NCBI GenBank assembly: GCA_026388115.1
Contig: JAPLKK010000121.1
Location: 32,504-78,348 of the forward strand
Direction: 5' to 3'
Source of the DNA: Elusimicrobiota bacterium
GTDB taxonomy: Bacteria > Elusimicrobiota > Elusimicrobia > UBA1565 > JACRDR01
DNA length: 45,845 bases
The notes under the pieces are model-generated. The model ran no database searches. It saw only the letters and a list, made by a program, of their open reading frames with translations, and was not told where the DNA came from. Shown piece after piece: positions 384 through 29,872 of this stretch. Position 1 is the stretch's first letter; the number at the start of each line of letters is the position of its first letter. Both the position numbers and the translations under genes were made by a program.

Positions 384-510
384 AAGCTTGTTCCTCCTGC
401 TTGAGATATGCCTCCAAACGGCCTTCCGCCGCCACTAAGATTCCACTGATAGCGAAAGAGCGTGGATTCGCTGGCTTTTTTCATCGGAGAGGCGCCGGGC
501 TGAACGGCGC
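384..510 (-). promoter_or_regulatory. Conserved 5' leader, copy 1
   Basis: Core TTAGTGGC is the complement of 431-438. Upstream is CGTTCAGC (about 500-507) followed by a CCTC segment that can pair with the AGGAGG in front of the ATG. Downstream is GTTTGGAGGCATA. The possible hairpin before the core is TCCAC/GTGGA. Confidence 0.65.
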
Positions 511-661
511 TTATCCTGATGCCCGGCCTGCTTGGCGCAGCTCAGCCCTTGCCCGGAGCCGACGTTCGGCGGCGACACCGCTGCATCCCAGCAACAGGGC
601 TGTCCCCAGTTGAAGATGCAGGTCTGTCCAGAACCCGTCACGTACCAAGCTGCCGTTTCTC
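435..661 (-). pseudogene. Possible remnant of a Cys-rich secreted protein gene
   Basis: In the gap between the first gene and the CPBP protease one minus-strand frame reads a protein-like, Cys-rich stretch: 'AWYVTGSGQTCIFNW', then 'GQPCCWDAAVS', then 'GQGLSCAKQAG'. A TGA lies just upstream and there is no start codon or signal peptide. The frame then runs into the leader. The composition resembles the secreted Cys-rich proteins of this island, so it may be the 3' end of a decayed gene. Chance coding in GC-rich DNA is the alternative. Confidence 0.3.
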
Positions 662-746
662 AGCGAAAGGACGTTCGCGAGTCCTAGGAGCACGATGGGC
701 CCGAGGACCCCTGGCGAAAGCGGGATTCCGGACCACCATCGTAGAG

Positions 747-2063
747 ATGAGGCTTTCGGCGGCCTTTTCGATCCTATTCGCGCTCGCCTCGCCCACCACG
801 GCGCAGATGCGCACCGTGGAAGTGGCCGTTCCCAATGCCGGCGACTCGGCGGCGGCAGGGGCGGCGCAAAGCGCCGGCGCGGCTATCTCCCCCCAGATAT
901 CGGTCTCCCCGTGCCCCCTCACTCTGACCGCTCCAGCGATCGCGCCGGTGACGCCCGTCGCGACGATTCAAACTCTCCCTCAGGTTGGACACGCCGCGAT
1001 AGCCCTTCCTTCCTCGAGCATCGCTCCCCTCGCGCAATCCTCGGTCAGGAGGGACTTCGCCGAGACCGCGCCGGCCAAGACGGCGTCCCTTGCCGAAGCG
1101 GCCCCGGCCTCGGTCGCGCAGGCGAAAGCGGCGCCTGCGACGGTCTCCGCCGCGCCGCCCTCCGCGGCGATGACCCGGGGCGCGTTCCAGCTTCCTGCAC
1201 AGAAAGCGCTGCCTCGTTTCGCGGCGGCGGATCCTGCCTCGACCGGCGTGCAAGCCCGGGCGCCGGGCCAAGCGGACAACGGACGGACTCTGTTCGACGG
1301 GGACAAGCAGCGCGCGGATATGGAGCGGGAGCCGTCGATCGCCGTCGAGGGAGGGGCGAAGCCAACGAGCCGCCCCGCGGCCCTTCTCGCGTCGGCAAGG
1401 GCTGCCACGGTCAGAGTCTGGAACTCCCTGCCCCTGCCCAAAGAGCGCGACGCGGACGAGCCTTACGCTTGGTCCAAGGCGAAGCGCTGGCTCACTCTGG
1501 CGGGTCTTTTGAGCATGCTTTCCGTCGCGCCCGCGGCGGCGTTCGCGACGATCCGCGCTCCCTTCGTCCCCCTCTCGTTCGGGGTCGGCGTCCTGCACTC
1601 CTGGCCCTTGCTGATTGCCATCGCCGGCGCGGCGGCGTTGATCGGGATTCCCCTGCGGGTCTTCGCCCACAAGCTCGCGCCTTGGACGATGAAGGGGAAG
1701 AGCCCCACCGACAAGATGATGGACCGGGCGCCGCTGCTTCTGGCCCTCCAGCTCCTCATCGGCGCGGCAGCCGAGGAGTACGCGTTCCGCGGCATGGTCT
1801 TCCCCTTCGCCTCGGCCCTCCTGACGGCATGGCTGCCGATCCCAGCCGCCCTGACGGCCGGCGCCTTCCTTTCGGCCTTCGTCTTCGCGTTGATCCATCG
1901 CTACGGCCCCGTGTGGACGCGGGTAGTCGGGGCCCTTCTTTACACCATCGCGTTCGTGGCTTCCGGCACCTTGCTGCTGCCGATCCTCATGCACTTCTTC
2001 TTCAACCTGAACCAGCTCGTGAAGATGCGGCGCATGGCTCGGACCGGCGAGACGCTCGCCTGA
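747..2063 (+). CDS. CPBP-family intramembrane metalloprotease with long exported N-terminus
   Basis: The 438-residue protein starts at ATG 747 with a signal peptide (MRLSAAFSILFALASPTTAQ). About 220 Ala/Pro/Ser-rich residues follow, then a membrane domain. The CPBP (Abi/CAAX-protease-like) signature is 'GAAAEEYAFRGMVF', with the Glu pair at residues 343-344 and Arg 348, followed by 'FALIHRYG' and 'LMHFFFNLNQL', which supply the conserved histidines and asparagine. Family members cleave or process membrane substrates; the substrate here is unknown. An earlier in-frame start at 519 would precede the signal peptide and is unlikely. It runs convergently to the TPR gene. Confidence 0.85.
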   Translation: MRLSAAFSILFALASPTTAQMRTVEVAVPNAGDSAAAGAAQSAGAAISPQISVSPCPLTLTAPAIAPVTPVATIQTLPQVGHAAIALPSSSIAPLAQSSVRRDFAETAPAKTASLAEAAPASVAQAKAAPATVSAAPPSAAMTRGAFQLPAQKALPRFAAADPASTGVQARAPGQADNGRTLFDGDKQRADMEREPSIAVEGGAKPTSRPAALLASARAATVRVWNSLPLPKERDADEPYAWSKAKRWLTLAGLLSMLSVAPAAAFATIRAPFVPLSFGVGVLHSWPLLIAIAGAAALIGIPLRVFAHKLAPWTMKGKSPTDKMMDRAPLLLALQLLIGAAAEEYAFRGMVFPFASALLTAWLPIPAALTAGAFLSAFVFALIHRYGPVWTRVVGALLYTIAFVASGTLLLPILMHFFFNLNQLVKMRRMARTGETLA

Positions 2064-2128
2064 TTTTCCCTTTGCAGGCGGCCTCCTGCCCATTGCCGCG
2101 AGATGACGGGCGGCACCGCAAATCGTTC

Positions 2129-3765: not shown

Positions 3766-3895
3766 AGGCCCTCCCCCCTCACAGTCAACATGTAGCTCGA
3801 ACGGCGATGCTATCGCCACTAAGTTTTCTCTCTACTGAAATTGGCTTATTGTTCAATGACTTATTGTTACAGGCACCGCCGCCCTGAAACATTCG
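3766..3895 (-). promoter_or_regulatory. Conserved 5' leader, copy 2 (GAGCTACATGT subtype)
   Basis: Core TTAGTGGC is the complement of 3815-3822. Upstream hairpin is TTTC/GAAA. The core runs into a perfect hairpin GGCGAT-AGC-ATCGCC. In place of TTTGGAxGCATACC it has GAGCTACATGT, shared only with the copy at 20619. At its 5' end it carries GTTTCAG. Confidence 0.65.
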
Positions 3896-3928
3896 CCTTC
3901 GGAACCAAGACACGCGGAACCCGTCGGC

Positions 3929-3963: not shown

Positions 3964-5435
3964 ATGCTCGGCGGACCATTGATCTTGCTGACCGTGGGCC
4001 TGCTCGTTCCGTACGGCCAAGCGAGCACGGATCCCGAGGCTGCGAGGGAGAACGAGATCACGGTCAAACCGCCGAACTCCATGAAAAGGATGCCGTTGAG
4101 CCTGGAAGCCCTCCAGGCCGTCGCAGAGGCGCCCCTCCCCGCCTCGGGCGCGACCGACCCGGCGACCGTCGAGTTCCTGGCGACCGTAGCGCGGCTGCGA
4201 GCCCTGGCCAAGGCGCTGATGGAACCGCTCCAGACCGGCGGACCCTCATCGACGGCGCCGACCGCATGGCGGGCGACGTCGGCATGCTCGACGCGCTCAA
4301 GACGGCTCGCCTGACCGAAGAGGCCAAGGCGCTGCTCACCAGCGGCAATCCCGCCATGATCACGCGCGCCAAGGTGGCCGACTTCCTCGCCTTCGGCCGC
4401 GTCAGCGAGGACATGCACCACATCCATGTCACGGTGCGGTCGGTCCTCGACATGGACGAGGACGCGTACAGGCAGCGCCGCGAGCAGCTCCAGGCGCAGG
4501 CGGAGCGAAGGCGGCTGTTGTGGGAGACGGCGGCGGGCGGAGCCTTCCTCCTGATGATCGCGGGCTTCGGGGCGCGGCAGCTGCGCAGGCGGAGGCTGGC
4601 GGCCAAGGCGGCGGGGCTGGGCACGGGCAGCCTCATCGGCGGCAACTACCGCCTCGACCGCGAGCTCGGCCGCGGAGGCATGGGCCGCGTGTTCGAGGCG
4701 ACGGACATCGGCCTGCGGCGGAAGGTGGCGATCAAGCTGCTGCGCCCGGAGCTCAGGCAGAACCCCGAGGACCTGGAGAGGTTCCTGGCCGAGGCGCGCC
4801 TGGTCGCGGCGCTCAGGCACCCCAACATCGTCGAGATCCACGCGATCATCAACGAGGGCGACGACCTCCACCTCGTCTTCGAGCTCGTGCCCGGCCGTCC
4901 GCTCGACATGGAGCTTCGCAGCGTGGGACGCCTCCCCTTCCACTCGGCCTGCGCGCTGATCGGACAGGTGGCCGCTGCGCTCGATTACGCCCACGCGAAC
5001 AAGATCATCCATCGCGACCTCAAGCCCGGCAACATCATGGTGACCCCGCAGGGCTCGGCCAAGGTGATGGATTTCGGCCTTGCCCATCAGGCGCTCGTGA
5101 CGGTGGCGAAGCTCACCCGGGTCGCCAAGTGGGGGACGCCGCCTTACATGGCGCCGGAGCAGGAGATGGGCCTGGTATCGCGCGAATCGGACCTCTTCGC
5201 GCTGGCGGTCCTCTTTTACGAAGCCGTGGCCGGGCGCTTGCCGTTCCCCGGCCCCAACTACCTGGCCCAGAAGCGCGAGATGCGCTTCACCCCCCTTTCG
5301 GCCGTGCTGCCCGGCCTGCCGCCGGCCCTCGACGAAGCGATGAACCGCGCGTTGCAAGCCGACCCGGCGCTACGCTTCCACTCGGCGGCCGAGTTCGCGC
5401 AAGCCGTCGCCGCCGCGCCGCCCGCGGCGGGCTGA
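3964..5435 (+). CDS. Membrane Ser/Thr protein kinase 1 (frameshifted)
   Basis: Two frames together make one protein of about 490 residues. The first (from ATG 3964) gives a signal peptide (MLGGPLILLTVGLLVPYGQA) and a helical extracytoplasmic region. The second (open through 4266 to 5435) continues it, then a transmembrane helix ('AAGGAFLLMIAGFGA'), a basic stop-transfer and a C-terminal kinase domain. The frames join near 4236-4245, where one base seems to be missing ('LQTGG' then 'TLIDGADRMAG'). The kinase has GRGGMGRVFEATD, VAIK lysine, HRDLKPGN, DFG and APE motifs, so looks active. The sensor-TM-kinase order is the reverse of PknB. Paralogs: 12192, 15282, 42721. Confidence 0.75.
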
Positions 5436-5492: not shown

Positions 5493-6080
5493 CTAGCGCC
5501 TGCAATTTAGAATAGGCTGTCCATTGCAGGCGGCCCACTTCGAGTCTCTCCCGAGAAAGATTGCGGTCACGTTGCTCTCCGACCACGAGTTGACTGCGCA
5601 GGCGCCGCCTATTCCGAGCTTCACTATGGCCGCCGCCGACAGGTCGATCACGGCTTTCTTGGAGCCGGGACCGACGTCGATCTGCTTGAAGACGTACTCG
5701 CCGCGGGAGAACTTCACGAGCCAATAACCGTTCAGGTATTTTCGGTTAGGTCTGCTGCCCACCCTGACGGCGACGCCGGGGACGCTCCCCGACGCCACGC
5801 CTGACGCGGTGTGCCCGTTGTCTCCCCTGTCGCAGCTGCCGCCGAAGCCGGTCATCCTGCCCTTCACGGTCGGCCCCCCCGAGTTGACAGCCGTCCGCAG
5901 GTCATCGGCGTTCCCGGCTTGCACCTGCCGCCTTGCGTCTGCCGGGATATTGACGCTGGTGCCCAACTGCTGGGCCCAATAGTCTGCGTCAGCCAATCCC
6001 TGCTGAACGGGAGGTCTCGCCGCAGAAGCCGCCGGCACCATGATTCCGAGTAGCGCGCTGAAGAGTATCACGAGATTCAT
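5493..6080 (-). CDS. Secreted RlpA/3D-like double-psi beta-barrel protein
   Basis: The 195-residue protein starts MNLVILFSALLGIMVPAASA, a signal peptide, after GGGAGGC. It carries 'VKGRMTGFGGSCDRGDNG', 'VASGSVPGVAV' and 'QIDVGPGSKKAVIDLSAAA', the same barrel pattern as the product at 2660, and ends 'CNGQPILNCRR', a variant of the shared Cys tail. It is a single-gene unit with its own leader. A role at peptidoglycan is inferred from the fold family only. Confidence 0.7.
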   Translation of the reverse strand: MNLVILFSALLGIMVPAASAARPPVQQGLADADYWAQQLGTSVNIPADARRQVQAGNADDLRTAVNSGGPTVKGRMTGFGGSCDRGDNGHTASGVASGSVPGVAVRVGSRPNRKYLNGYWLVKFSRGEYVFKQIDVGPGSKKAVIDLSAAAIVKLGIGGACAVNSWSESNVTAIFLGRDSKWAACNGQPILNCRR

Positions 6081-6232
6081 TTTTGCCTCCCGACCACCTG
6101 TCTCTGTCTTCACTCGCTGTGTAGCCCACAGGCGCCAAGGATGGCCACTAAGATTCTTCTCAGCGGAAAAGGAAGCTGGACGCGCAAGAAGAATACGGGA
6201 CACCAGGGAGGCGGACTGAACATTTGCTGAGC
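6081..6232 (-). promoter_or_regulatory. Conserved 5' leader, copy 3
   Basis: Core TTAGTGGC is the complement of 6144-6151. Just upstream, ATTCTTCT can pair with AGAAGAAT. In the 5' part, after GTTCAG, is GCCTCCC, an exact 7-base complement of the GGGAGGC in front of the ATG. The rest of this gap (6233-6345) shows nothing recognisable. Confidence 0.65.
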
Positions 6233-7089: not shown

Positions 7090-7240
7090 CATCGAGGCCA
7101 CCCCCATAATGCCTGTAACGGCTTCGCGCCGATGATTCCTCCAAAAGGCGCGCTGGCGCCACTAAGATTTCGCTGATATGGGAAAGCATTGCAGCAGCGT
7201 CACAAATCGCATCCGCAAACCGCGCCATAAGCGCGTCTCA
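7090..7240 (-). promoter_or_regulatory. Conserved 5' leader, copy 4
   Basis: Core TTAGTGGC is the complement of 7158-7165. The upstream hairpin is TTTC/GAAA and the downstream hairpin is GGCG-ccag-CGCC-like. TTTTGGAGG follows. The 5' half is diverged and no GTTCAGC block is visible. Confidence 0.55.
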
Positions 7241-7280
7241 AGTCGATCCGATTGCCAGTAGCGCGGCGACTGGAGTTACG

Positions 7281-7448: not shown

Positions 7449-7610
7449 CTCAGCTGCCGTTCAGCCACCCGACGCCAGCGACGAGCAAGCGTCGGTATTA
7501 TCGACGCTTTCTGCAATAAGAAAGTCCTTAGTGGCGCGTCCAAGCCGATCCAACGCACATTCATGTGAGGAGAGGCGGGGCCCTGACCTAGCTTAGAAGG
7601 GAGGTGAATC
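7449..7610 (+). promoter_or_regulatory. Conserved 5' leader, copy 5 (plus strand)
   Basis: CTCAGCTGCCGTTCAGCC starts at 7449. Core TTAGTGGC is at 7528-7535. Immediately upstream is a perfect hairpin CTTTCT-gcaata-AGAAAG, and GGC/GCC flank a short loop after the core. A GGGAGGTG Shine-Dalgarno precedes the ATG at 7611. This copy shows that the element tracks gene starts and not one strand. Confidence 0.65.
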
Positions 7611-9726: not shown

Positions 9727-9855
9727 GGGTTTGACCTCGCATGAAAGGTATGGCTCCAAATGGCGCTCTGGCGCTACTAAATTTCCGCTGATTGAAAAAG
9801 ATTCAAAACAAGAAGGATTTTTTCATGAGGGGCGATCCGGTTGAACGGCGATTAC
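9727..9855 (-). promoter_or_regulatory. Conserved 5' leader, copy 6
   Basis: Core TTAGTAGC (one change from TTAGTGGC) is the complement of 9773-9780. TTTTTC/GGAAA forms the upstream hairpin. Near the 5' end CCTCATGAAA can pair with TTTCATGCGAGG at the Shine-Dalgarno (10 bp with a 2-base bulge). Its 5' end abuts the stop codon of the preceding gene. It is nearly identical to the copy at 11948. Confidence 0.65.
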
Positions 9856-10799
9856 AGGGTCGAGGCGATGCAGGCAGCCCAGTGCGGGCCGTTGGCCCTG
9901 ATAGTCCCGCATTCTGTCGTTTTTTGACCGGACAGGGTGCAGACGGCGTATCCGTTGCTCGATTGCGTCCAACAGATGACCACCTCGCCGGACGGATACC
10001 TGCACTCGTTGTTGCCGTTGCTGTGCTCGGCACAGGACACGCGGCCGCCGGAAGCAATGTCGCATCCGGGACCATAGGCGTTTCTGTAACAGTAGGTATT
10101 GCCCTGCGGGCCCGGGCAGACAGTCTGCGCGCCGTGTATCTCACAGTTCGCTGAAAGCTGCTGGGCGGGAGGGGGCGGCTCGACGACAGGCGGCGGCGTG
10201 AATTCCAAGAGGCCGGATGCCTTGGGGTTGGCGGCTCCGTCGAGGACGCGGCAGGCCACTTTGTAGTCGCCGACTTTATGAGAAGGCAGGGTCTCATCCA
10301 CAAACTTAGTCATGGAGAGCGCGCCTTCTACTTCATTTCTATTCTTTTGCGCCATGTCCGCCATTTCACTGGCTTTGAATCCAAACAAGTAAGCGAAAAC
10401 CATGGGATTGGGGTCATTAAAGTAGACCCATAACTCATCTCTACCGTTTTCTTCTTTGACTAATATGCCCCCTGTCTTATTCAGCACCGACGACGTGGGC
10501 TTCTTATCATTCAGCCCACGTATCCATCCTACGCCTGCGGCAGGAGGGTCCACGACCTTGCATTGAATGGCATTCGGAAACCGGGAAGCCGGCCCGTTCT
10601 GCGCATTTTCCGTGCCGACCGCCCTTGGTTCCCCGGCAGCCGGCACCTGGATATCGGCGGCGGATTGGGTGCCGGTGATGGCCTCGACCTTCTTGAGGAC
10701 CGCGCCTGTGTCGAGACTGCCGGCGGGGGCTGGAATCGCCGCGGTTAGCACGGCTAGAGCTGCAAAAGCGGCCAGACACTTCCGGGGAACGCTCTTCAT
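9852..10799 (-). CDS. Secreted protein with Cys-rich C-terminal domain
   Basis: The 315-residue protein has a signal peptide (MKSVPRKCLAAFAALAVLTA). A central domain of about 170 residues contains 'ELWVYFNDPNPMVFAYLFGF', followed by a Pro-rich linker ('PPPVVEPPPPAQ') and a C-terminal region of about 90 residues with many Cys ('CEIHGAQTVCPGPQGNTYC', 'CGTIRANGPHWAAC'). The start at 10799 is chosen because GGAG lies nine bases upstream; ATG 10808 leaves no room for a ribosome site. It has no leader of its own and follows the small gene at 10889. A truncated copy of its 3' end lies at 12070. Function unknown. Confidence 0.65.
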   Translation of the reverse strand: MKSVPRKCLAAFAALAVLTAAIPAPAGSLDTGAVLKKVEAITGTQSAADIQVPAAGEPRAVGTENAQNGPASRFPNAIQCKVVDPPAAGVGWIRGLNDKKPTSSVLNKTGGILVKEENGRDELWVYFNDPNPMVFAYLFGFKASEMADMAQKNRNEVEGALSMTKFVDETLPSHKVGDYKVACRVLDGAANPKASGLLEFTPPPVVEPPPPAQQLSANCEIHGAQTVCPGPQGNTYCYRNAYGPGCDIASGGRVSCAEHSNGNNECRYPSGEVVICWTQSSNGYAVCTLSGQKTTECGTIRANGPHWAACIASTL

Positions 10800-11110: not shown

Positions 11111-11245
11111 AATCCCTCCTGCTGCTAAAACTCTAGCCGGAATCCGGCAACGCTCGCCACTAAGATTCCTCTGATCGAAAATGACGCTCGGAAACAACCG
11201 CTTCTTGCGCCCCGGCGGCGCGCGGCCATAACGTGTTGACCTGTC
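11111..11245 (-). promoter_or_regulatory. Conserved 5' leader, copy 7
   Basis: Core TTAGTGGC is the complement of 11156-11163 and opens a stem GGCGA-gcg-TTGCC. The upstream hairpin is TTTC/GGAA. The 5' block is weak (CGTTAT). The B-stem differs in sequence from other copies but keeps pairing. Confidence 0.55.
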
Positions 11246-11947: not shown

Positions 11948-12072
11948 GGGTTTGACCTCGCATGAAAGGTATGACTCCAAATGGCACTCTGGCGCTACTA
12001 AGTTTCCGCTGATTGAAAAAGATTCACAACACGAAGGATTTTTTCATGAGGGGCAATCCGGTTAAACGGCGA
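11948..12072 (-). promoter_or_regulatory. Conserved 5' leader, copy 8
   Basis: Core TTAGTAGC is the complement of 11994-12001. Near-identical to the copy at 9727, including CCTCATGAAA against TTTCATGCGAGG. The 5' block is CGTTTAACC. The duplication that made it also carried over the gene fragment at 12070-12118. Confidence 0.65.
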
Positions 12073-12118
12073 TTACGAGGCCGTTGGCCCTAATCGTCCC
12101 GCATTCTGTCGTTGTGTC
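12070..12118 (-). pseudogene. 3'-end remnant of a second copy of the 9852 gene
   Basis: The fragment reads 'TTECGTIRANG' and then a stop, matching the last residues of the 9852 product, with about 27 bases deleted near the end. It sits against leader copy 8 exactly as the intact gene sits against leader copy 6. Homology stops near 12120, where the upstream region of kinase 2 begins. Confidence 0.65.
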
Positions 12119-13785: not shown

Positions 13786-15276
13786 ATGACGATCCGGATG
13801 AGGCTCGCGCTGCTGATCTGCGGGCTGGTCGCCTTCTCCTTCGCGTTGTCCGCGGCGATCCTGGCGTGGTCCGCGCGACGCGCGAGCGACGCGCAGGTCG
13901 AATCCCGGCTCACAGCGTTCAACGAGGAGCTCGCGGCGTCGGCCGAGCACGCCATCGCGGCGCGGAATCTGTCGCTCTTGGCGCCCTCGGCCAGAACGGC
14001 GATGATGGAGAGAGGAATGCTTTTCCTCTCGGTCTCGCGCGCCGACGGCGGGACGTTGTGGCGCGCGGCGCGAGCGGGCTTTTCGGAGCCCCTCAACGAG
14101 GAGGGAGTCCGTCTCGCCTTGGCCGCCGGGCGCCGGCCGAAGTCGTCCTACGAATCGAGCGGCGCCTCCGCCTGGGAGTGGGTGATCCCGCTCCAGGCGC
14201 GCATCGAAACGAGAAAGGGAACCTTGGGCGCCGATACGACCGGCGTGGTCCTGCGCGCGGGCTATGACGCCGCCCAGCTCCGCCGCGAGGCATCGGCGGC
14301 CGCCGCCCAAGCGGCCGGCCCGGCGCTCAAGAACCTGCTGCTTGCCGCTCTGGCCTGCCTGGCGCTCGGGTTCGCCGGCGCGGCGCGGCTTTCGGCCGGA
14401 TTCACGCGGACCATCCGCAAGCTTCTCACGGGCGTACAGGCCGTCGGCGAGGGTCATCTTTCGGCCCGGGTCCAGACGAGCCGCGCCGACGAGCTCGGCG
14501 AGTTGTCGGGCGAATTCAACGCCATGAGCCAGCGTCTCAAAGAGCTCGAGCATCTCAAGGAAAGCTTCCTGCTGACCATCACCCACGATCTGAACAACCC
14601 GTTGTCGGCCGTCACAGGGTACGCCGAGCTGCTGCGCTCGGGCACCTACGGCCCGGTCACGGAAAAGCAGGCAGCCGCCGTAGACCGGATCTCCGAAGGC
14701 GGCCACCGGCTCGCGGAGTCGATCGACAACATCCTGGATCTCACCCGGATCGAGGCGGGCAAGATGCCCGTCGCGCCCCAGGAGCTTCACTTGGGAACCG
14801 TGGTGCAGACGGCGATCGGCCCGCTCGAGGCAAAGGCCCGCGAGTTGGGTGTCGTCTTCGACGCCTCGGCCATTCCCGACGACGACGCCGTCTGGGCCGA
14901 CGAGCGCGCCCTGCAGCGGCTTCTGTCGAACCTGGCTTGGAACGCGCTCCGCTACACGCCCAAGGGCGGCCGGGTCTCGCTGAGCTTCAGGCGCGGGCCG
15001 GCCGGGACGCCGGGAGAGGACGTCGTCGTGGTCGAGGACACGGGAGCCGGCATACCGAAGGACAGGCTCTCGAGGATCTTCGAGAAATTCTCGCGGATCG
15101 AGGAAACGGCCGGCGCGGCGCGCCTGCCCAGCGGGCCGGGGCTCGGGCTCGCGATCTGCAAGCGGATCGCCGAAAGGCACGGGGGGCGCATCTGGGCCGA
15201 GAGCGAACTGGGCCGCGGCTCGGCTTTCTTCGTCTCGCTGCCGCGCAACAGCCCCGGCAGCTCTGCCCGGCCCTGA
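13786..15276 (+). CDS. Membrane sensor histidine kinase (HAMP-HisKA-HATPase)
   Basis: The 496-residue protein has a first transmembrane helix (about residues 5-27), a periplasmic sensor of about 150 residues and a second helix ('LLLAALACLALGFAGAA', about 183-200). A HAMP linker follows, then the dimerisation domain with phospho-acceptor His267 ('LTITHDLNNPLSAV'), then the ATPase domain with 'WNALRYTPKGG', 'VEDTGAGIP' and 'GPGLGLAICKRI'. All catalytic motifs are intact. No response regulator is adjacent; the nearest receiver domain in the window is at 32853. It sits between two Ser/Thr kinase genes and ends five bases from the convergent kinase 3 stop. Confidence 0.9.
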   Translation: MTIRMRLALLICGLVAFSFALSAAILAWSARRASDAQVESRLTAFNEELAASAEHAIAARNLSLLAPSARTAMMERGMLFLSVSRADGGTLWRAARAGFSEPLNEEGVRLALAAGRRPKSSYESSGASAWEWVIPLQARIETRKGTLGADTTGVVLRAGYDAAQLRREASAAAAQAAGPALKNLLLAALACLALGFAGAARLSAGFTRTIRKLLTGVQAVGEGHLSARVQTSRADELGELSGEFNAMSQRLKELEHLKESFLLTITHDLNNPLSAVTGYAELLRSGTYGPVTEKQAAAVDRISEGGHRLAESIDNILDLTRIEAGKMPVAPQELHLGTVVQTAIGPLEAKARELGVVFDASAIPDDDAVWADERALQRLLSNLAWNALRYTPKGGRVSLSFRRGPAGTPGEDVVVVEDTGAGIPKDRLSRIFEKFSRIEETAGAARLPSGPGLGLAICKRIAERHGGRIWAESELGRGSAFFVSLPRNSPGSSARP

Positions 15277-19061: not shown

Positions 19062-20618
19062 TTTTGCTGCTCCTGCTTGACCATCGCCGCCGCCGTGTAC
19101 GCGTCCGAGATCGCCTGGTCCAGATGCTTCTCGGCATCGGACGCCTTGGATGCACGTTGGTCGACCGGCGTGGCTTTGGCGAAGGCGGCGAACCAACTAT
19201 TGATCGCCGCGGTCAGCTCGGTCTGCTCGTCGGCGAACACGTCCGCCGCCGCCGAGCTCGTCTTCAGGACGCTCAACGCTTGTTTCAGATTTCTGTCCCA
19301 CCTTCAGGAATTCATTCCACGGGTGCCGCATGTCCCATAGCGCCGCGGCCACCCCCTGGTCGTTCGGCGACTGGCTCTGCATGGCGGCGATATTGGCGGC
19401 TTGCACCGATCGGAGGGTGAACGCGTACGACGTGGTCCCCTCGCAGTCGAGCGCCCCACCCGACGAGCTGAAATTGTCCGTCCCCGCCGCGAGCCGGGCC
19501 TCGCAGTCGTGAGCGGCTTGCAGGTGCGCCGAATAGGAAGCGAACCCGCTCGAGCCCAACCGGCTTGCCGCATCCGCATCCGTCAGGAGCGCCATCCGCG
19601 TGATCTCGGTGAAGTCGGCGGAAGCGGGCCGGGCGACGTAGTTGACGAGGAAGTCGCCCTGCTGGTCGACGAACTGCTGCGGGCTGAGGTACTGCAAAGT
19701 GGGGGCGTTGTTAGTGCCGCCGCCGCCACTGCCGCCGCCCGTCGCCGCCCCCGTATTCGCCGGAGCGACGGGCGCCGCCGGAGACGCCGCCGCTGCCGGT
19801 GCCGCGGCAGCCGGCGCCGACGTGCCGGCGCGTTGGGACGCGGAGTTCGTTGCCCCACCGCCCCAGGACAAGGCGCTCCCAGCCGATTCCGCCGACCACG
19901 GCATGGCTTTCGAGATCGGGTTGGATCCAAGAGGCGAGGCCGCCCGGCGGCCCGTGGGGTCCGTGATCAGCGAGGCGAGGAAGTGATGCGCGGGCGCCGT
20001 CTTCCCGATATCCGCCGAACGGTTGAGGTTGGCGGCGACGGCGCCATCCGGCCCCGTCTGCGCCCCATTCGGGTGAGCCATAGCTTGGTCGCCCGTCCCG
20101 ACGTGCGCCCCGGCGACGGCCCCACCTCCCGCCCTGTTGACGTCGTGACCAAAGCCCGCGTGGTCCAACGTGCCGACGACGCGGGCGGGCTCGGCCGCGG
20201 GCGCGGAGGCGGGTTGCTGCGGCTCGGGCCGAGCCGGCTGTTCGGCGTTAGGCGCCTCGACGAAATGGTTGGATTCCGGGGCGGTGGCGGTCTCATTCGG
20301 GGCGGTCCAACCGGAGAAGGGCTCCACCATCGAAAGGCTCCGGCCGGCCTGCGACGTCGAAGATTTTCGGCCGACGCGCGGAACCGCAAGCGCCCGGGCC
20401 TTGTTCCCGGCGGCGCCGAAGATCCAGCCGGTGGGCGCCTTACCCGACGGGCGCGCGCTGCGAGTCTCGTCGGCATCCGGCGACGAGCTGATGTGCTTGA
20501 GGCCCAGCGAGATCACGGCGATCACGGCGATGCCGGCAAGAAGATTCCCGGGCTGGGCCACGAATGCCGGCAGCTTTCGCATGCTCGACTTCTCCGGGTT
20601 GGTATTCCTGAGCTTCAT
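19058..20618 (-). CDS. Membrane-anchored Ala/Pro-rich protein with C-terminal helical domain (frameshifted)
   Basis: From ATG 20618 the protein has an N-terminal anchor ('LLAGIAVIAVISLGLKHI'), about 280 low-complexity Ala/Pro/Gly residues and a C-terminal domain starting 'LQYLSPQQFVDQQGDFLVNY'. After 'WNEFLKV' the frame breaks; the adjacent frame continues as 'RNLKQALSVLKTSSAAADVF' to 'AAAMVKQEQQK' at 19058. Removing one G from a GGG run (complement of 19297-19299) restores one frame of about 519 residues. An alternative start is ATG 20582. The C-terminal domain is helical and partly extracytoplasmic. First gene of a five-gene series; function unknown. Confidence 0.6.
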
Positions 20619-20735
20619 ACCCTACATGTAGCTCCCAAGGCGAACTCACCGCCACTAAATTTTTTCTTAGTGAAATTTGCTTGTGCTCACAGGCCTTTTT
20701 TCGCCCGGCACCACCTGCCTGAACCGTCCGTCATT
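20619..20735 (-). promoter_or_regulatory. Conserved 5' leader, copy 9 (GAGCTACATGT subtype)
   Basis: Core TTAGTGGC is the complement of 20651-20658. CACTAA and TTAGTG around AAAAAAT can also pair, giving a CACTAA/TTAGTG stem that absorbs the core. Then GGCG/CGCC, then GGAGCTACATGT. The 5' block is GGTTCAGGC. Confidence 0.6.
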
Positions 20736-20750
20736 CCCCAAAACGACGCA

Positions 20751-22372: not shown

Positions 22373-22505
22373 GGGTGTGGCCTCGCACCAAAGGTATGCA
22401 TCCAAAGGGCTTGCCGAGTCCACTAACGTTTTATTTAGCACGGAAACGTCAGGCGCGCAATGCCTATTTCAGCGAGGGAAGGTCTGGCTGTAGGGTTGCT
22501 GAGAG
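22373..22505 (-). promoter_or_regulatory. Conserved 5' leader, copy 10
   Basis: Core TTAGTGGA is the complement of 22419-22426. The upstream hairpin is ACGTTT/AAACGT, different in sequence from all other copies but fully paired. TTTGGATGCATACC precedes GCGAGG; the 5' part contains CCTCGC, a 6-base complement of that Shine-Dalgarno region. Confidence 0.65.
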
Positions 22506-23493: not shown

Positions 23494-23630
23494 TAGGCTG
23501 GCCTCGCGCAAATGATGCGTCCAAACGGCGTTCCGGAGCCACTAACTTTTCTCTAAGGCGAAGAACTCAAGCGGTGGCAAGGCTTTCTTCAAGGAAGAAA
23601 CGTTCGGCTGTACGATCACTGAGCGCCGGC
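23494..23630 (-). promoter_or_regulatory. Conserved 5' leader, copy 11
   Basis: Core TTAGTGGC is the complement of 23538-23545. Upstream hairpin TTCT/AGAA-type. GTTTGGACGCATCATTTGCG follows, where CGCA/TGCG forms a perfect hairpin directly before the GAGG Shine-Dalgarno. Confidence 0.6.
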
Positions 23631-24849: not shown

Positions 24850-24884
24850 AGGCCCTCCCTGCGTGATGGGATTCATATCCGTTC

Positions 24885-25640
24885 CTAGCGGCACTTGCCG
24901 ACGCACTTGCCGTTATACTGGGCGTAGCTGGAATCCTTTCCCAGATAGGTCGCGCTGACGTTGTTCCACGAGGCCGGGGTCGTGACGCTCAGGCCGTGCG
25001 CCGGCAGCGAGCCGGCCGTAAGGTCGATCTTGTTCCCGGTCCAACCCGCCGGTCCCAGGTCGGTCTGCCTGTAGACCCAATCCCCGTCGTCCATGTGCAC
25101 GAGCCAGTAGCCGCCCAGGTGGCTCCTGTTGAACGAGTCCGTGGCGTTGCCGTCGGCGTTCACCGCCACTCCCGGCACGCGGGTGGAACTGCCATCGGCT
25201 GTCTTGCCGGCCCAGCCGTTGGTGCTGGAATCGGCCGGCCCGCCGAACATGGTCGCCCGGCCCTTGACCTGCGGGTTGCCGTTGTCTTTCGCATCCTGTT
25301 CGGCCTTCGCGAAGCGGTCCGCCGTGCTTTGGGGGCAGTTGGCGTTCACCTTCCCGTCGCTCGCCTCGAGGTTGCAGCCGGCGATGTTGGCCCCCAGGTC
25401 CGCCTTTTTTTTGCACGGATCGAAATTCACGTTGCGCACCGTGCCGGGCCCCAGCGCATCGCGGAGGTTCTGCTCGAACTGCTCCGTCTTTTGTTTCACC
25501 TTTGCCTGCTTCTTTGCGTCGCAAGGATCGGCGTCGTTCGCCGCTGCCCCAGCCGAGCCCTGTCCGGGGCAGAGCATCGGCAGCGCGGCGGCTACAACAG
25601 CCGCCAGCCAAAACGAGGACGCATGACTCTTTCCTCTCAT
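24885..25640 (-). CDS. Secreted RlpA/3D-like double-psi beta-barrel protein
   Basis: The 251-residue protein starts MRGKSHASSFWLAAVVAAAL after AGGAGG, which overlaps the end of the preceding gene. A helical region with two Cys ('DPCDAKKQAKVKQKTEQFEQ') precedes the barrel: 'GRATMFGGPADSSTNGW', 'VPGVAVNADGNATDSFNRS', 'QTDLGPAGWTGNKIDLTAGS'. It ends 'YNGKCVGKCR'. About 70% like the C-terminal part of 22513 by eye. It is the second gene of a four-gene unit (26318-23630). Confidence 0.7.
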   Translation of the reverse strand: MRGKSHASSFWLAAVVAAALPMLCPGQGSAGAAANDADPCDAKKQAKVKQKTEQFEQNLRDALGPGTVRNVNFDPCKKKADLGANIAGCNLEASDGKVNANCPQSTADRFAKAEQDAKDNGNPQVKGRATMFGGPADSSTNGWAGKTADGSSTRVPGVAVNADGNATDSFNRSHLGGYWLVHMDDGDWVYRQTDLGPAGWTGNKIDLTAGSLPAHGLSVTTPASWNNVSATYLGKDSSYAQYNGKCVGKCR

Positions 25641-25649
25641 GATCGCCTC

Positions 25650-26318
25650 CTACGGATTCCTCGACTTGAGCACTCGGATCGGCGGCCGCTTTATGAAGGG
25701 GCGGGAGAGCCCGGAAGGGGCTTGCGCGTTCGAGCCGTCGGGAGCTTGCGCTGAAGGCGCGCTGGTCGACCACGGAGCCGGGAGCGGAGCCAAAGCCGGA
25801 GCCGCGTTCGACTTCATGAGAGTGGCGGCCCCCACCTGCTGCTGGACCGGCGCGTTCGACGTGGGGCAGCTGGTAGACCACGTGCCCGTGCCCGGGCACC
25901 ACTGGTTCGTCGGGGTCGGCGCGGCGGGCGTCTGGGGAGTCGAGGATCCGGTGTCCGACGGATAGGTGGGGTTCTGAGAGCTGGGGTCCTGGGCGCTGGG
26001 GCTCTGCCCGGCGCCTCCGCCCTGCCCCATCGCCGATGCGGCTTGGCCCAGGGGCCCCATGAGTTGCCCCAACTGTCCCAGGCCGCCGTCGCCGCCGCCC
26101 GCCGCTTGCTGGACCGCTTTATTCACGGCGTTCTGATTCACGCCGCCACCACAGGCGTCGCCGAGGGCCCCGACTACCCCCTTCGCCGCAGCCTTGCGCT
26201 CCGGGCAGCAGTCCGGGATCGGCATCGGAGTCCCGTTCGCGCACACGAACGCTTGGGCCCCGCGTCCCAGAGGAACCGCAAGCAGCGTTGCGGCGATCAA
26301 AATGAATCTCATTTTCAT
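25650..26318 (-). CDS. Secreted protein, WCPGTGTW / SRNP-tail family
   Basis: The 222-residue protein has a signal peptide (MKMRFILIAATLLAVPLGRG), a Cys head ('VCANGTPMPIPDCCPERK'), a Gly/Gln-rich hydrophobic middle, 'NQWCPGTGTWSTSCPTS', and the tail 'SGLSRPFIKRPPIRVLKSR'. The head, WCP motif and tail are all nearly identical in 27458; 26474 shares the WCP motif and tail. The conserved tail suggests recognition at the C-terminus, as for a sorting signal. First gene of a four-gene unit. Confidence 0.65.
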   Translation of the reverse strand: MKMRFILIAATLLAVPLGRGAQAFVCANGTPMPIPDCCPERKAAAKGVVGALGDACGGGVNQNAVNKAVQQAAGGGDGGLGQLGQLMGPLGQAASAMGQGGGAGQSPSAQDPSSQNPTYPSDTGSSTPQTPAAPTPTNQWCPGTGTWSTSCPTSNAPVQQQVGAATLMKSNAAPALAPLPAPWSTSAPSAQAPDGSNAQAPSGLSRPFIKRPPIRVLKSRNP

Positions 26319-26452
26319 CAGTCCGACCTCACGCCAAAGGTATGCATCCAAACGGCTTGCGGGCGCCACTAACTTTTTCTTCAGCGTGAACAAGCGCGCG
26401 AATCAAAGGGCTTTTTGAGGGACGAAGAGCCCCGTTAAACGGCGCCTGAGCG
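26319..26452 (-). promoter_or_regulatory. Conserved 5' leader, copy 12
   Basis: Core TTAGTGGC is the complement of 26365-26372. CGTTTAACG block at the 5' end, then CCTCA, a complement of TGAGG at the Shine-Dalgarno. TCAAAAAGCCCTTTGA can form a hairpin. GTTTGGATGCATACC follows the core. Confidence 0.65.
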
Positions 26453-26473
26453 GGCTTCTCCACGATCGCCGGC

Positions 26474-27301
26474 TCACGGATTCCTCGACCGTATCACTCG
26501 GACCATCCCATGGTTGCGGGAGAGCCCCGTGGAGGTCTGCCCATCGGCGCCTAGCGCGGGAGCCTGCGACGAGGCCGGGCTGGCGTACCTCATAGGCTGT
26601 ACCGGGTTGGAAGCCGCATTCGCAGAAGCGGCGCTCGGGGCTGCTGACGTGACGGCCCCCACCTGCTGGGTCGGCGCGGTGCCCGCGGTGGGGCAGGAGG
26701 TAGCCCATGTACCCGTGCCTGGGCACCACTGCATCGGCGCGCTCTCCGCGTCGGCCGGGGAGGTCGCCTGGTCCGATCCGATGTCCGCCGTCGAAGGATC
26801 GCTGTAGCCCGCCGAGTCGTTGCCGACCTGCTGGCCTCCCGCCATCCCGGCGGCGGCCTGGCCAAGCGCCCCTACGGCTCCTTGCGCCAGACCCTGCGCC
26901 AACGGTCCCATGGCGCTGTTGCCGCCGCCCTGGCCTGCCGCGCTACCGCCGGCTCCCTTTCCTGCGCCGCTGCTGCCAGCGCCACCCTGCGATGCCCCGC
27001 TGCCGAGGCCGTCGGCCCCACCCTGTTGCTGGAACGCTTTGTCCAGGGCGTTCTGGTAATTAAAATTCGGGGGGCAGGAGTTGCAGCCGAGGCCGCCGCC
27101 GGAGGCCAGGCAGGCCTGCTTCGTCTGGGCGACATTCTCGGGGCAGCAATCCTTGATCGCGCATACCCCCGACTTGCACTTGACCTGTCCCGCCGGGCAA
27201 GAATCCGCCCCTCCGCCCCCGCAAGTGGCGCACATGGCGCCGCATTTGCGAACGGGAACCATCAGCAGCATCGCGGCTACCGCCAGAAATCTCGTTTTCA
27301 T
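26474..27301 (-). CDS. Secreted Cys-rich protein, WCPGTGTW / SRNP-tail family
   Basis: The 275-residue protein has a signal peptide (MKTRFLAVAAMLLMVPVRKCG), then an enlarged Cys-rich head ('MCATCGGGGADSCPAGQVKC', 'VCAIKDCCPENVAQTKQAC', 'GCNSCPPN'). A long Gly/Ala-rich hydrophobic middle follows, then 'MQWCPGTGTWATSCPTAG' and the tail 'TGLSRNHGMVRVIRSRNP'. The head is longer than in its sisters, so heads are swapped while the C-terminal half is kept. Single-gene unit with its own leader. Confidence 0.65.
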   Translation of the reverse strand: MKTRFLAVAAMLLMVPVRKCGAMCATCGGGGADSCPAGQVKCKSGVCAIKDCCPENVAQTKQACLASGGGLGCNSCPPNFNYQNALDKAFQQQGGADGLGSGASQGGAGSSGAGKGAGGSAAGQGGGNSAMGPLAQGLAQGAVGALGQAAAGMAGGQQVGNDSAGYSDPSTADIGSDQATSPADAESAPMQWCPGTGTWATSCPTAGTAPTQQVGAVTSAAPSAASANAASNPVQPMRYASPASSQAPALGADGQTSTGLSRNHGMVRVIRSRNP

Positions 27302-27440
27302 CGGTTTGACCTCACGCGAAAGGTATGCGCCCAAAGCGGGTCCGGGCGCCACTAACTTTTTTTTCAGCGCGAGGGCATCCGGTAATCAAAGGACTTTTTT
27401 TCGGAGCGAGACCTCCTGCTGAACGGCGGCTGAGCAGGTT
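27302..27440 (-). promoter_or_regulatory. Conserved 5' leader, copy 13
   Basis: Core TTAGTGGC is the complement of 27348-27355. CTCAGCCGCCGTTCAGC at the 5' end. The B-hairpin is longer here (GCGCCC/GGGCGC) and takes in the TTTGGGCGC block. TGAGG is the Shine-Dalgarno. Confidence 0.6.
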
Positions 27441-27457
27441 TCTCTATGATCAACTCT

Positions 27458-28129
27458 TCACGGATTTCGCGAACGAAGCACTCGGATCGGCGGTCGTTTG
27501 ATAAAAGCACGGGAGAGCCCCGAAGGGGCTTGCGCGTTGGAGCCGTCGGGAGCTTGCGTTGAAGTCGCATTGGCCGACCACGGCGCCGGGAGCGGAGCCA
27601 AGGCCGGAGTCGTCGGATTCGCGGAAGCCGTATTCGGGTTCAAGCTGGTGACGGCCCCCACCTGCTGGATCGGCGCCGTCGGCGGGGGGCAGGATGTAGC
27701 CCACGTAGCCGTGCCCGGGCACCACTGGTTCGTCGGGGTCGGCGCGGCAGGCGTCTGGGAGGGAGAACTCGTGGCTCCGGTGTCCGAAGGATAGCTGGGG
27801 GTCTCAGGGCTGGCCGTCTGCGGGCTTGCGCCCTTCCCCATCGCTGACGCAAGTTGGCCCAGGGAGGACGACAGGGCTTGTCCCAACTGTCCCAGGCCGC
27901 TGTCGCCGCCCGCTTTTGCATCCACCGCTTTCTTCACGGCGTCGTTATTCACGCCCTTACCACAGGCGTCGCCGAGGGCCCCGACCACCGCTTTCGCCGC
28001 AGCCCTGCGCTCCGGGCAGCAATCCGGGATCGGCATAGGAGTCCCGTTCGCGCACACAAACGCTTGGGCTCGGCGCCCAAGGGGAACCGCCATCAGCGTC
28101 ACGGCGACCAAAATGGATTTCGTATTCAT
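27458..28129 (-). CDS. Secreted protein, WCPGTGTW / SRNP-tail family
   Basis: The 223-residue protein is a close paralog of the product at 25650: signal peptide, 'VCANGTPMPIPDCCPERR', 'AVVGALGDACGKGVNNDAV', a Gly/Ala-rich middle, 'NQWCPGTATWATSCPPP' and 'SGLSRAFIKRPPIRVLRSR'. The middle is the least conserved part. Single-gene unit with its own leader. Function unknown; the hydrophobic middle could associate with membrane. Confidence 0.65.
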   Translation of the reverse strand: MNTKSILVAVTLMAVPLGRRAQAFVCANGTPMPIPDCCPERRAAAKAVVGALGDACGKGVNNDAVKKAVDAKAGGDSGLGQLGQALSSSLGQLASAMGKGASPQTASPETPSYPSDTGATSSPSQTPAAPTPTNQWCPGTATWATSCPPPTAPIQQVGAVTSLNPNTASANPTTPALAPLPAPWSANATSTQAPDGSNAQAPSGLSRAFIKRPPIRVLRSRNP

Positions 28130-28267
28130 AAGTGTAGCCTCGCGCCAATGGTATGCGTCCAAACCGAACGTCGACGCCACTAAGTTTCCTCTGTTTGTGA
28201 AGAAATCCGGCGATCAAAGGATTTCTTTGAGGAAAGGAACGCCCGGCTGAACGGCAGCTAAGCCCGC
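28130..28267 (-). promoter_or_regulatory. Conserved 5' leader, copy 14
   Basis: Core TTAGTGGC is the complement of 28176-28183. The upstream hairpin TTTCTTC-acaaaca-GAGGAAA is long. TCAAAG-aaatc-CTTTGA is a second perfect hairpin. TTAGCTGCCGTTCAGCC marks the 5' end and GTTTGGACGCATACC follows the core. Confidence 0.65.
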
Positions 28268-28287
28268 ATTTCAAGAGCGCGGCGCTC

Positions 28288-29130
28288 TTACTGAGCGAGA
28301 AGACCGCGGCAGATCAAGGGAGTGGCCGCCTCCGACGATCCTCGGCAGCGGCGGTTCAGCACCTCGATCGAGGGCTTGCATTGGCCGGACGTCGAGCAGA
28401 TATCGAAACACCTCTGCTCCGACCGGCCGGAGCCAAGACAGACTTCCCACGCGTCCGGAACGCGACACCCGGGAGTCTTCTGGCAGGACGCCGCGCATTC
28501 CTCAAAACGGCCGGCATCGAGACATTTCCCCCACGTCTCCGCGCGAACCGCCCCCGTCTCCACGGGTCTCGGGCCGCTACCGGCGGACGCGCCGGCACGG
28601 CCCGAGGAAGTCAAAAGGTGCTCGGACCCCGGCACGGCCTCGGATTGCGCAGAGCCGCCCCATGGCGCCAAGGGGTCTTTAAACGGAGGGGGCCGCTTGG
28701 AGAGCAACGCAAGCGGCACGCACACGAACGCGGTCAAGAGCGCGAGGCGCGAGAGAAGCGGGTTGAACCGCCGGAAGGCGGCCGCGTACGAAAGCTTCTG
28801 GCCGTCGGCCGCGCCCGCCTCCGCCCGGCGCGGCTTGGATGCGGCAGCGGCCCCCGACGGCAGGAGGACGCGCGCCTCGTCCTTTTCGCTGCCCCCGGCT
28901 TTGCTCGCCCCAGCGTCTGATTCAGGCGGGCGCCTCGGCTCCGGCAGCAAGCCCGCCAGTTCCTTCACCCGCCGCGCGGGCCTCCAGTTCCGCCGCTTTC
29001 CCGGCGCCTTGCCCTCGGGGCAGACCAAGGATTGGGGCCCGAACCCTGGCCGCGCGGCCAGTTCCGCGACGGCGAACGGCCCTTTCGGGTGTCCGGACTC
29101 CAGCAGCCAGAATCGCGCCCCTTCGGACAT
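28288..29130 (-). CDS. GYF_2-domain membrane protein with Cys-rich C-terminal domain
   Basis: The 280-residue protein begins with a GYF_2-type domain ('FWLLESGHPKGPFAVAELAA', 'SLVCPEGKAPGKRRNWRPAR'). A charged linker, one transmembrane helix ('LLSRLALLTAFVCVPLALLS', about residues 127-146) and a C-terminal exported domain with paired Cys follow ('WGKCLDAGRFEECAASCQ', 'WEVCLGSGRSEQRCFDIC'). The product at 31606 has the same architecture with two GYF_2 domains. GYF domains bind Pro-rich peptides, and Pro-rich proteins are abundant here, but the partner is unknown. Divergent from the GNAT gene. Confidence 0.75.
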   Translation of the reverse strand: MSEGARFWLLESGHPKGPFAVAELAARPGFGPQSLVCPEGKAPGKRRNWRPARRVKELAGLLPEPRRPPESDAGASKAGGSEKDEARVLLPSGAAAASKPRRAEAGAADGQKLSYAAAFRRFNPLLSRLALLTAFVCVPLALLSKRPPPFKDPLAPWGGSAQSEAVPGSEHLLTSSGRAGASAGSGPRPVETGAVRAETWGKCLDAGRFEECAASCQKTPGCRVPDAWEVCLGSGRSEQRCFDICSTSGQCKPSIEVLNRRCRGSSEAATPLICRGLLAQ

Positions 29131-29198
29131 GCGTCATCAGTATAGCGGCGAGCCGCGATTGCGCAAGAGGGCGCGGAAGATGGTAGCATCCCCGAATC

Positions 29199-29702
29199 AT
29201 GGCGGCACGGCTAAGCGTCGGAGTGCGACGTGCCAAAGGACGGGCCGAACTCGAATGGTGCGCGCGCCTCATGGCGGGATCGGAGCCTTGGCTCACGCTA
29301 AGACGCGGCTGCCGCTCCGCCTTGGCGATCCTTCTGGATCCATCGCGCGAGGTGCATGTCGCGGCCGCCGGCGGCCGGCCGGTGGGCTTCATCATCATCG
29401 CGATGACCGGCCCCTTCAGGGGATACATCCAGACGATCGCGGTCGATCCCGCGCATCGGGGCTCCGGGGTCGGCGGCCGCCTTATCTCGTTCGCCGAGCG
29501 GCGCATCTTCGCGGAGAGCCCCAACGTCTTCCTTTGCGTATCCTCGTTCAACCATCGGGCCCGCAAGCTCTACGAGCGCCTGGACTATAAGGTGGTCGGC
29601 CGGCTCAAGGATTACGTCGTCCGAGGCCACTCGGAGATCCTGATGAGGAAGACGACGGGGCCGCTCTCCGGCTTCAAGCCGGCCCGCCGAGCATCGAGCT
29701 GA
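29199..29702 (+). CDS. GNAT-family N-acetyltransferase
   Basis: The 167-residue protein has the GNAT acetyl-CoA motif in 'IQTIAVDPAHRGSGVGGRLIS' (R/Q-x-x-G-x-G/A) and a later 'NHRARKLYERLDYKVVGRLK', the typical fourth-motif helix and strand. It is close in length and pattern to RimI-like acetyltransferases, but the substrate cannot be told. A TAGCAT (29184-29189) nine bases before the ATG may be its -10 box, with no good -35. There is no ribosome site. Confidence 0.85.
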   Translation: MAARLSVGVRRAKGRAELEWCARLMAGSEPWLTLRRGCRSALAILLDPSREVHVAAAGGRPVGFIIIAMTGPFRGYIQTIAVDPAHRGSGVGGRLISFAERRIFAESPNVFLCVSSFNHRARKLYERLDYKVVGRLKDYVVRGHSEILMRKTTGPLSGFKPARRASS

Positions 29703-29719
29703 CCGATGCGTAAGCGCAC

Positions 29720-29872
29720 GTGACGCGCGTTTAAGCGACGTCCCTTCGGCACCGAATTATCGGTGCAAATGCAGGGATTCTCCCCTTAAGAATCTTTTTA
29801 GTGGCGTCAGCCCGGGCTTTCCGGCAATCCTCCAAGCGAGACGGGCTTCAGCACCGCCCGAGGTGGAGTCAA
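29720..29872 (+). promoter_or_regulatory. Conserved 5' leader, copy 15 (plus strand)
   Basis: Core TTAGTGGC is at 29798-29805. The upstream hairpin is GATTCT/AGAATC, preceded by GCACCG-aattat-CGGTGC and by CGTTTAAGC at the 5' end. GAGGTGGAG precedes ATG 29873. Second plus-strand copy. Confidence 0.6.

What the first reader, a model, noticed from the sequence alone, without database searches (positions are those of the whole stretch)
384..29872. Fifteen copies of an unrecognised 5' leader define a surface-protein regulon
Seen directly: a shared element of about 120-150 nt precedes the first gene of 15 units, with cores at 431, 3815, 6144, 7158, 7528(+), 9773, 11156, 11994, 20651, 22419, 23538, 26365, 27348, 28176 and 29798(+). 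Parts in order: GTTCAGC/GTTTAAC block, A-rich stretch, hairpin A, TTAGTGGC, hairpin B, TTTGGAxGCATACC-like block, Shine-Dalgarno, ATG. It points the same way as the gene on both strands, and every first gene encodes a signal peptide or membrane anchor. I know no Rfam family with this core. It is either a new cis-regulatory RNA or an extended promoter with a structured UTR.
Basis: partly seen in the sequence, partly recalled or inferred. Interest (0 to 1): 0.92.

Follow-up and report, generated by a model that had tools for sequence, protein, structure and literature searches.

The report
Activated promoter shared by surface genes
The repeated stretch in front of these genes is most likely not a new regulatory RNA but a DNA switch, a promoter with paired landing sites for a regulator protein, that lets an uncultured Elusimicrobiota bacterium turn on dozens of mostly unrelated secreted and surface proteins together.

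Summary
The 15 copies are real, and a sequence-only model of them finds 24 more in the same genome (39 at E<=0.1). The element looks like a promoter, not an RNA leader. Counting TTAGTGGC as positions 1-8, a second half-site TNAR lies 11 bp upstream in 34 of 39 (next-best offset 10). A sigma70-like -10 lies at 29-34 (A at 30 in 35 of 39), and a pyrimidine/purine start at 40/41 (32 and 37 of 39). The median predicted 5' UTR is 14 nt. No covariation and no Rfam match were found. A further 11-bp repeat lies about 65-80 bp upstream in many copies. Such tandem half-sites suit OmpR/PhoB response regulators. One such gene sits divergently beside a copy just left of the window; a relative sits likewise beside the best copy in G010, of another family. 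First genes mostly have a hydrophobic N-terminus (34 of 37 against 2 of 16 controls); 36 proteins fall into 24 clusters. New regulon and motif, known kind of mechanism. Which paralogous regulator binds is unproven.

The parts
398..516 (-). Promoter element 1: core 431-438, -10 405-410 (CATATC). Extent in all 15 rows = predicted start to about 78 bp before the core
   Evidence: TCAGTGG-N4-TTAGTGG direct repeat
3782..3900 (-). Promoter element 2: core 3815-3822
6111..6229 (-). Promoter element 3: core 6144-6151
7125..7243 (-). Promoter element 4: core 7158-7165 (upstream box not recognisable)
7450..7568 (+). Promoter element 5: core 7528-7535
9740..9858 (-). Promoter element 6: core 9773-9780 (TTAGTAGC)
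11123..11241 (-). Promoter element 7: core 11156-11163 (upstream box weak)
11961..12079 (-). Promoter element 8: core 11994-12001 (TTAGTAGC); near-duplicate of element 6
20618..20736 (-). Promoter element 9: core 20651-20658
22386..22504 (-). Promoter element 10: core 22419-22426 (TTAGTGGA)
23505..23623 (-). Promoter element 11: core 23538-23545
26332..26450 (-). Promoter element 12: core 26365-26372; top hit of model R1
27315..27433 (-). Promoter element 13: core 27348-27355
28143..28261 (-). Promoter element 14: core 28176-28183
29720..29838 (+). Promoter element 15: core 29798-29805
13786..15276 (+). Histidine kinase (HAMP, HisKA, HATPase_c) inside the element array; weak candidate sensor. 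The candidate OmpR-type regulator gene lies outside the window, C251:30169-30870(-), about 1.6 kb left of window base 1
   Evidence: Pfam; no OmpR-type gene beside it among the 25 listed; similar kinase in 15 of 33 subfamily loci against 5 of 29 other loci, but in none of the loci of the candidate's own clade; regulator

Best explanation
Each copy is a positively controlled sigma70-type promoter of about 120 bp. Shown in sequence: a -10 hexamer (consensus about YATAYY) with a pyrimidine/purine start 7 nt beyond it; beginning 28 bp before the -10, the core TTAGTGGC, which with a TNAR half-site 11 bp further up forms a tandem direct repeat over the -35 region; A- and T-tracts further up; and in many copies a second 11-bp direct repeat (CTCAG-N6-TTCAGC) about 65-80 bp upstream of the core. 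Inferred: an OmpR/PhoB-family response regulator binds the core repeat head-to-tail as a dimer in place of a -35 box and recruits RNA polymerase; a second dimer at the upstream repeat helps, perhaps by a bend. RNA starts just before the ribosome site, so the leader is short. The likely regulator is C251:30169-30870 or a close paralog; the histidine kinase at 13786-15276 is one possible sensor. Output: co-expression of about 40 genes, mostly for exported proteins of many families.
For: Half-site TNAR at -11 in 34 of 39, runner-up offset 10 of 39; upstream pair spaced 11 in 18 of the 26 copies with a clear TTCAGC, runner-up 4. Pattern TNAG-N7-TTAGTGGC, which ignores the -10, hits 16 places in the genome against 1 for the reversed pattern; all 16 are called elements, with A at -10 position 2 in 15 of 16 and a purine at position 41 in 16 of 16. 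In all 39: A30 35, purine at 41 37, pyrimidine at 40 32. In the 24 copies outside the training window: T at -11 23, A at -9 22, A30 20. OmpR-type gene (Response_reg + Trans_reg_C) divergent from element C251:30921(+), its start 43 bp from the upstream repeat. In G010, of another family, the best element (E 1.1e-6 with the window-only model R1) is also divergent from an OmpR-type gene of the same subfamily, 51% identical. G010's two copies on C3 keep both 11-bp repeats at the same places (read by eye). M. tuberculosis PhoP binds 7-bp direct repeats with a strict 4-bp spacer, an 11-bp period (PMC4832192, passages); the PhoB site is two 11-bp direct repeats (PMC3978041, passages). Hydrophobic N-terminus in 34 of 37 first genes against 2 of 16 controls.
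Against: No transcription start, footprint or expression data. The 39 copies were chosen by a model that includes the -10 and start columns, so those counts are partly circular; the 16-site pattern test was not selected on them, though the same 16 also passed the model. Upstream repeat clear in only part of the copies. The core ends 20 bp before the -10, further than I recall for the E. coli Pho box. G000 has nine regulators of the subfamily (my cut, at least 48% identity) and none is shown to bind. Pairing the G010 and G000 regulators alone is rejected (p-AU 0.005); G010's with the five-member G000 clade is not (p-AU 0.175), and G010's row is a long branch. G010's other regulator scores higher against the G000 one (250 against 219 bits). 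Same-family genomes G001 and G003 have many such regulators but no matching element. The kinase type is absent from the loci of the candidate's clade. Two analogous motifs guessed beside paralogs in other genomes were not above control or inconclusive.
Confidence: 0.8

Rival explanations
1. A new structured cis-regulatory RNA (riboswitch-like leader) of 120-150 nt upstream of the start codon.
For: Conserved blocks in fixed order upstream of ATG; GGC and GCC can pair in many copies (e.g. the GGCGATagcATCGCC hairpin at element 2, sequence).
Against: RNAalifold 0 pairs on 15 and 40 sequences. Helix scan best score 1.119 against 1.127 +/- 0.037 in shuffles, 16 of 30 shuffles as high. Hairpin B pairs in 61.6% of cells against 64.7% shuffled. 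No Rfam match at gathering scores; a permissive search of part of the window gave 4 chance-like hits. Conserved -10 and start inside the element.
Confidence: 0.05
2. A promoter read by a dedicated alternative (ECF-like) sigma factor, with TTAGTGGC as its -35 element and no activator.
For: The core is the most conserved block; a 20-bp gap to the -10 in most copies.
Against: A 20-bp gap is longer than the 16-19 usual between sigma boxes (recalled). The 11-bp repeat of the core and the second 11-bp repeat upstream are not explained. The -10 looks like ordinary YATAYY. Sigma-factor genes were not surveyed.
Confidence: 0.08
3. Same promoter type, but bound by a different OmpR-family paralog or a non-OmpR regulator; the divergent gene is a neighbour by chance.
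For: Nine subfamily members in G000, four of them in one clade with the candidate; 25 OmpR-type genes in all. A weak, uncalled match (C147:7410, E 0.17) lies about 0.8 kb from the clade member C147:5904.
Against: Divergent pairing recurs in G010. No element called at E<=0.1 or by R2 at E<=0.001 lies within about 7 kb of the other four clade members (positions).
Confidence: 0.3
4. Copies are by-products of tandem duplication of one gene with its promoter, with no shared regulation.
For: Elements 6 and 8 are near-identical over more than 100 bp (by eye); one protein cluster has 6 members, 5 of them in the window.
Against: 36 first-gene proteins fall into 24 clusters, 20 of them singletons, while the element stays conserved; copies on 17 other contigs at E<=0.1.
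Confidence: 0.05

Closest known systems
PhoP boxes of M. tuberculosis (PMC4832192, passages seen)
   Same: Tandem 7-bp half-sites with a 4-bp spacer, bound head-to-tail by an OmpR-family dimer
   Different: Different half-site; here often two tandem pairs at similar distance and a lineage-restricted surface regulon
PhoB Pho boxes (PMC3978041, passages seen)
   Same: Two 11-bp direct repeats (their place near the -35 region is recalled)
   Different: Half-site and distance to the -10 differ; no sign of phosphate control was looked for or seen
Leader RNAs in Rfam 15
   Same: Position upstream of many genes
   Different: No covariance-model match, no conserved pairing, predicted start lies near the ribosome site

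Membership tests
OmpR/PhoB-type activated promoter | Tandem half-sites with 11-bp (10-11) period | tested here: met
   34 of 39 at offset -11, runner-up 10 of 39; 16 sites against 1 control
OmpR/PhoB-type activated promoter | Site lies over or just upstream of the -35 of a sigma70 promoter | tested here: met
   -10 at 29-34, start at 41, core at about -40 to -33; the start is predicted only
OmpR/PhoB-type activated promoter | Receiver + winged-helix regulator encoded nearby | tested here: met
   Divergent gene beside an element in G000 and in G010; whether it is the true binder is open
OmpR/PhoB-type activated promoter | Regulator binds the site and activates transcription | not testable with these tools
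   Needs binding and reporter assays
Cis-regulatory RNA / riboswitch | Conserved secondary structure with covariation | tested here: not met
Cis-regulatory RNA / riboswitch | Match to a known family | tested here: not met
   whole window, gathering; 20500-29950, permissive
Cis-regulatory RNA / riboswitch | Element is transcribed | tested here: inconclusive
   Predicted start inside the element leaves a median 14-nt UTR; no RNA data
ECF sigma promoter | -35 and -10 boxes 16-19 bp apart | tested here: not met
   20 bp between TTAGTGGC and the -10 in most copies; the 16-19 range is recalled
Integron attC array | Inverted core sites and an integrase | not tested
   Considered because of the many small-gene copies; the shared blocks are direct repeats; no search for an integrase was made

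The most novel reading that the evidence does not exclude
An expanded family of OmpR-type regulators in this Elusimicrobiota order each carries its own 11-bp half-site code. In this lineage one code was spread as a portable promoter cassette to some 40 mostly unrelated, mostly exported proteins, giving a rewired surface-display programme that, among the genomes of the class searched, recurs convincingly only as 3-4 copies in G010.
Probability: 0.25. Interest if true: 0.65.

Novelty: new member of a known kind. Interest (0 to 1): 0.42.

Why it matters
It gives a testable promoter code and a candidate regulator for a surface-protein programme in an uncultured phylum, and points to many unknown exported proteins that are probably co-expressed. 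It also shows how a conserved block before many genes can pass for an RNA leader until promoter spacing and covariation are checked. Library searches showed no paper on such a regulon by title in the listings seen: 0 papers; 10 of 33 listed; 8 of 34 listed.

Tried and rejected
Structured RNA: rejected on covariation and on promoter grammar. Known RNA family: none. Sigma54: the GG-N10-GC spacing is off by one by eye and the -10 fits sigma70 better; not pursued. FliA-like box on the reverse strand: considered by eye, rejected because the genes lie on the other side. Tandem duplication only: rejected.

Breadth: model R1 (window copies only) in 19 other genomes: G010 (3 matches, best 1.1e-6) and G009 (1, E 0.08). 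Model R2, whose 40 training rows include 3 from G010, in 55 other genomes of the order: G010 only, 4 matches. In 234 other genomes of the class: G010 and one hit in G133 at 1.8e-5; the G133 hit reads by eye as receiver-type coding sequence with no -10 and is probably spurious. Over 40 genomes the tool uses stricter filters, so weak copies may be missed. Exact-pattern scan of named genomes: 0, but the window's own genome may be left out there. The 80 named loci were used only for one record title; they were not searched for the element. Analogous half-sites beside paralogs, one mismatch allowed: TACG type 115 hits against 226 reversed in three genomes; TTCAT type 4 against 0 in G008, 0 against 2 in G014, 1 against 2 in G006; of the four G008 sites looked at, only the starting one had the expected -10. 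So 'one code per paralog' stays unproven.

Rows dropped: C147:7410 and C251:74116 (E 0.17 and 0.37) left out of the 39; 2 of 39 elements (C64:80824, C229:5161) gave no ORF and were left out of the export count (37 of 39 used; 36 in the clustering); 1 of 35 regulator hits (G001_C23, in-frame stop) left out of the tree (34 rows). The export control has only 16 ORFs, picked by a slightly different rule (at least 200 aa, ATG with a ribosome site). Loci are of unequal length (mostly 2.5-5.5 kb, two of 14-15 kb, against about 2.5-3.2 kb for the three controls whose lengths were shown). In one search one of ten proteins was given in a wrong frame (12122-13786); it was rescanned as 12084-13700.
Full report
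Setting. The window is G000:C251:32504-78348 of a 4.15-Mb draft genome; the window is 66.8% GC. A contig of a genome in the same order (G012) matches in length and position the record 'Elusimicrobia bacterium GWA2_69_24', so I take the host to be an uncultured Elusimicrobiota; its own name was not given.

Observation. All 15 cores are present on the stated strands. Aligned on TTAGTGGC they share an A-tract at -43 to -39, TTTTC at about -20 to -16, T.A at -11 to -9, an A-rich run, the core, TTT at 21-23 and YATAYY at 29-34. A sequence-only model R1 of the 15 finds 39 matches at E<=0.1 in the genome, 24 of them outside the training set, 21 of those on 17 other contigs.

RNA test. RNAalifold predicts no pair on the 15-row or the 40-row alignment. 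A helix scan finds nothing above shuffles (observed 1.119; null 1.127 +/- 0.037; 16 of 30 shuffles as high). Rfam has no match in the window at gathering scores; a permissive search of 20500-29950 gives four chance-like hits, all far below their gathering scores.

Promoter test. Number the first T of the core 1. In 39 copies the second -10 base (position 30) is A in 35, position 41 is a purine in 37, and position 40 is a pyrimidine in 32. That is the spacing of a -10 hexamer and a pyrimidine/purine start. The start codon lies 40-83 nt after the core start in the 37 copies with an ORF, median 54 (starts picked by a simple rule), so the predicted UTR is 0-43 nt, median 14. These base counts are partly circular because the model includes those columns. 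A pattern with only the two half-sites, TNAG-N7-TTAGTGGC, gives 16 genome hits against 1 for the reversed control. All 16 are elements, 15 have A at position 30 and 16 a purine at 41.

Repeat test. TNAR occurs 11 bp before the core in 34 of 39; the next best offset has 10 of 39. In the 26 copies with a clear upstream TTCAGC, a second TCAG-like half-site lies exactly 11 bp before it in 18; the runner-up offset has 4. Tandem half-sites with an 11-bp period are how OmpR/PhoB-family dimers bind: PhoP of M. tuberculosis needs 7-bp motifs with a 4-bp spacer (PMC4832192, passages), and the PhoB site is two 11-bp direct repeats (PMC3978041, passages).

Regulator. G000 has 25 Trans_reg_C genes. One, C251:30169-30870(-), a receiver plus winged helix, starts 43 bp from the upstream repeat of element C251:30921(+), which drives an amidase gene (Amidase_2; a lipoprotein by eye) the other way. 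In G010, of another family, the best element (E 1.1e-6 with R1; 2.3e-10 with R2, which was trained on it) is likewise divergent from an OmpR-type gene of the same subfamily (51% identical) and drives a lytic transglycosylase with an SLT domain. G010's two copies on C3 show direct repeats 11 bp apart at the same two places (read by eye). The subfamily (at least 48% identity, my cut) has nine members in G000, five of them a G000-only clade (100/98 support). The data reject pairing the G010 and G000 genes alone (p-AU 0.005) but not G010's gene together with the five (p-AU 0.175). So the class of regulator is well supported and the individual is not.

Sensor. A kinase similar to the one at window 13786-15276 is found in 15 of 33 subfamily loci against 5 of 29 loci of other OmpR genes. 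Against it, none of the four loci that hold the candidate's five-member clade, nor G010's, has one. It is only a possible sensor.

Targets. Of 37 first genes, 34 have a strongly hydrophobic N-terminus against 2 of 16 control ORFs (Fisher p 3e-8), and 36 proteins fall into 24 clusters. Of 20 window proteins scanned only the histidine kinase passed a Pfam cut-off (one of the 20 was in a wrong frame; it and another ORF proved to be Ser/Thr kinases). Outside the window an amidase, and in G010 a transglycosylase, suggest envelope work.

Spread. Beyond G000 the element is found only in G010 among 55 other genomes of the order and, apart from one probably spurious hit, among 234 others of the class. 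G001 and G003, same family, have many subfamily regulators but no element; they are 79% and 77% complete. So the regulon is lineage-restricted, with loss or later spread both possible.

Verdict. A real, statistically clear regulon promoter of a known kind, not seen described in the listings. Not a new RNA.

Noticed in passing
window 7281-7300 and 7347-7366: Perfect 20-bp inverted repeat (GTGCCTGTCATCAACTTATT) 46 bp apart beside element 4, like the ends of a small mobile repeat; read from the sequence.
   Followed up: no
G000:C2:7371, C30:4065, C274:1307 (L044, L035, L038): Weaker copies of the promoter; two of the three (C2, C30) stand before genes whose start looks like a zinc-ribbon transposase (by eye), so the promoter may sit in or beside an insertion sequence.
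   Followed up: partly
G000:C64:80824 (L024, L056): A strong copy of the element is followed, where ATG is expected, by ACG and a signal-peptide-like reading (by eye); decayed copy, unusual start or sequencing error.
   Followed up: no
window 4266-5435 and 12084-13703: Two Ser/Thr protein kinases (Pkinase) inside the element array; such kinases also occur in 5 of 33 loci of the regulator subfamily against 1 of 29 controls.
   Followed up: partly
L053 about 5844-7285(+) (G010): A kinase-like protein follows directly after the OmpR-type gene (by eye only).
   Followed up: no
RR-divergent regions of G001, G003, G008, G014, G018: Several genes seem leaderless: a -10-like hexamer, 6 nt, then ATG, by eye; fits the same start grammar.
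   Followed up: no
window 21200-21430(-): Tandem Pro/Gly-coding repeats (GGCTTGGCGCCAGGCGTCTC units) in a predicted exported protein; a chance-like Rfam hit falls there.
   Followed up: no
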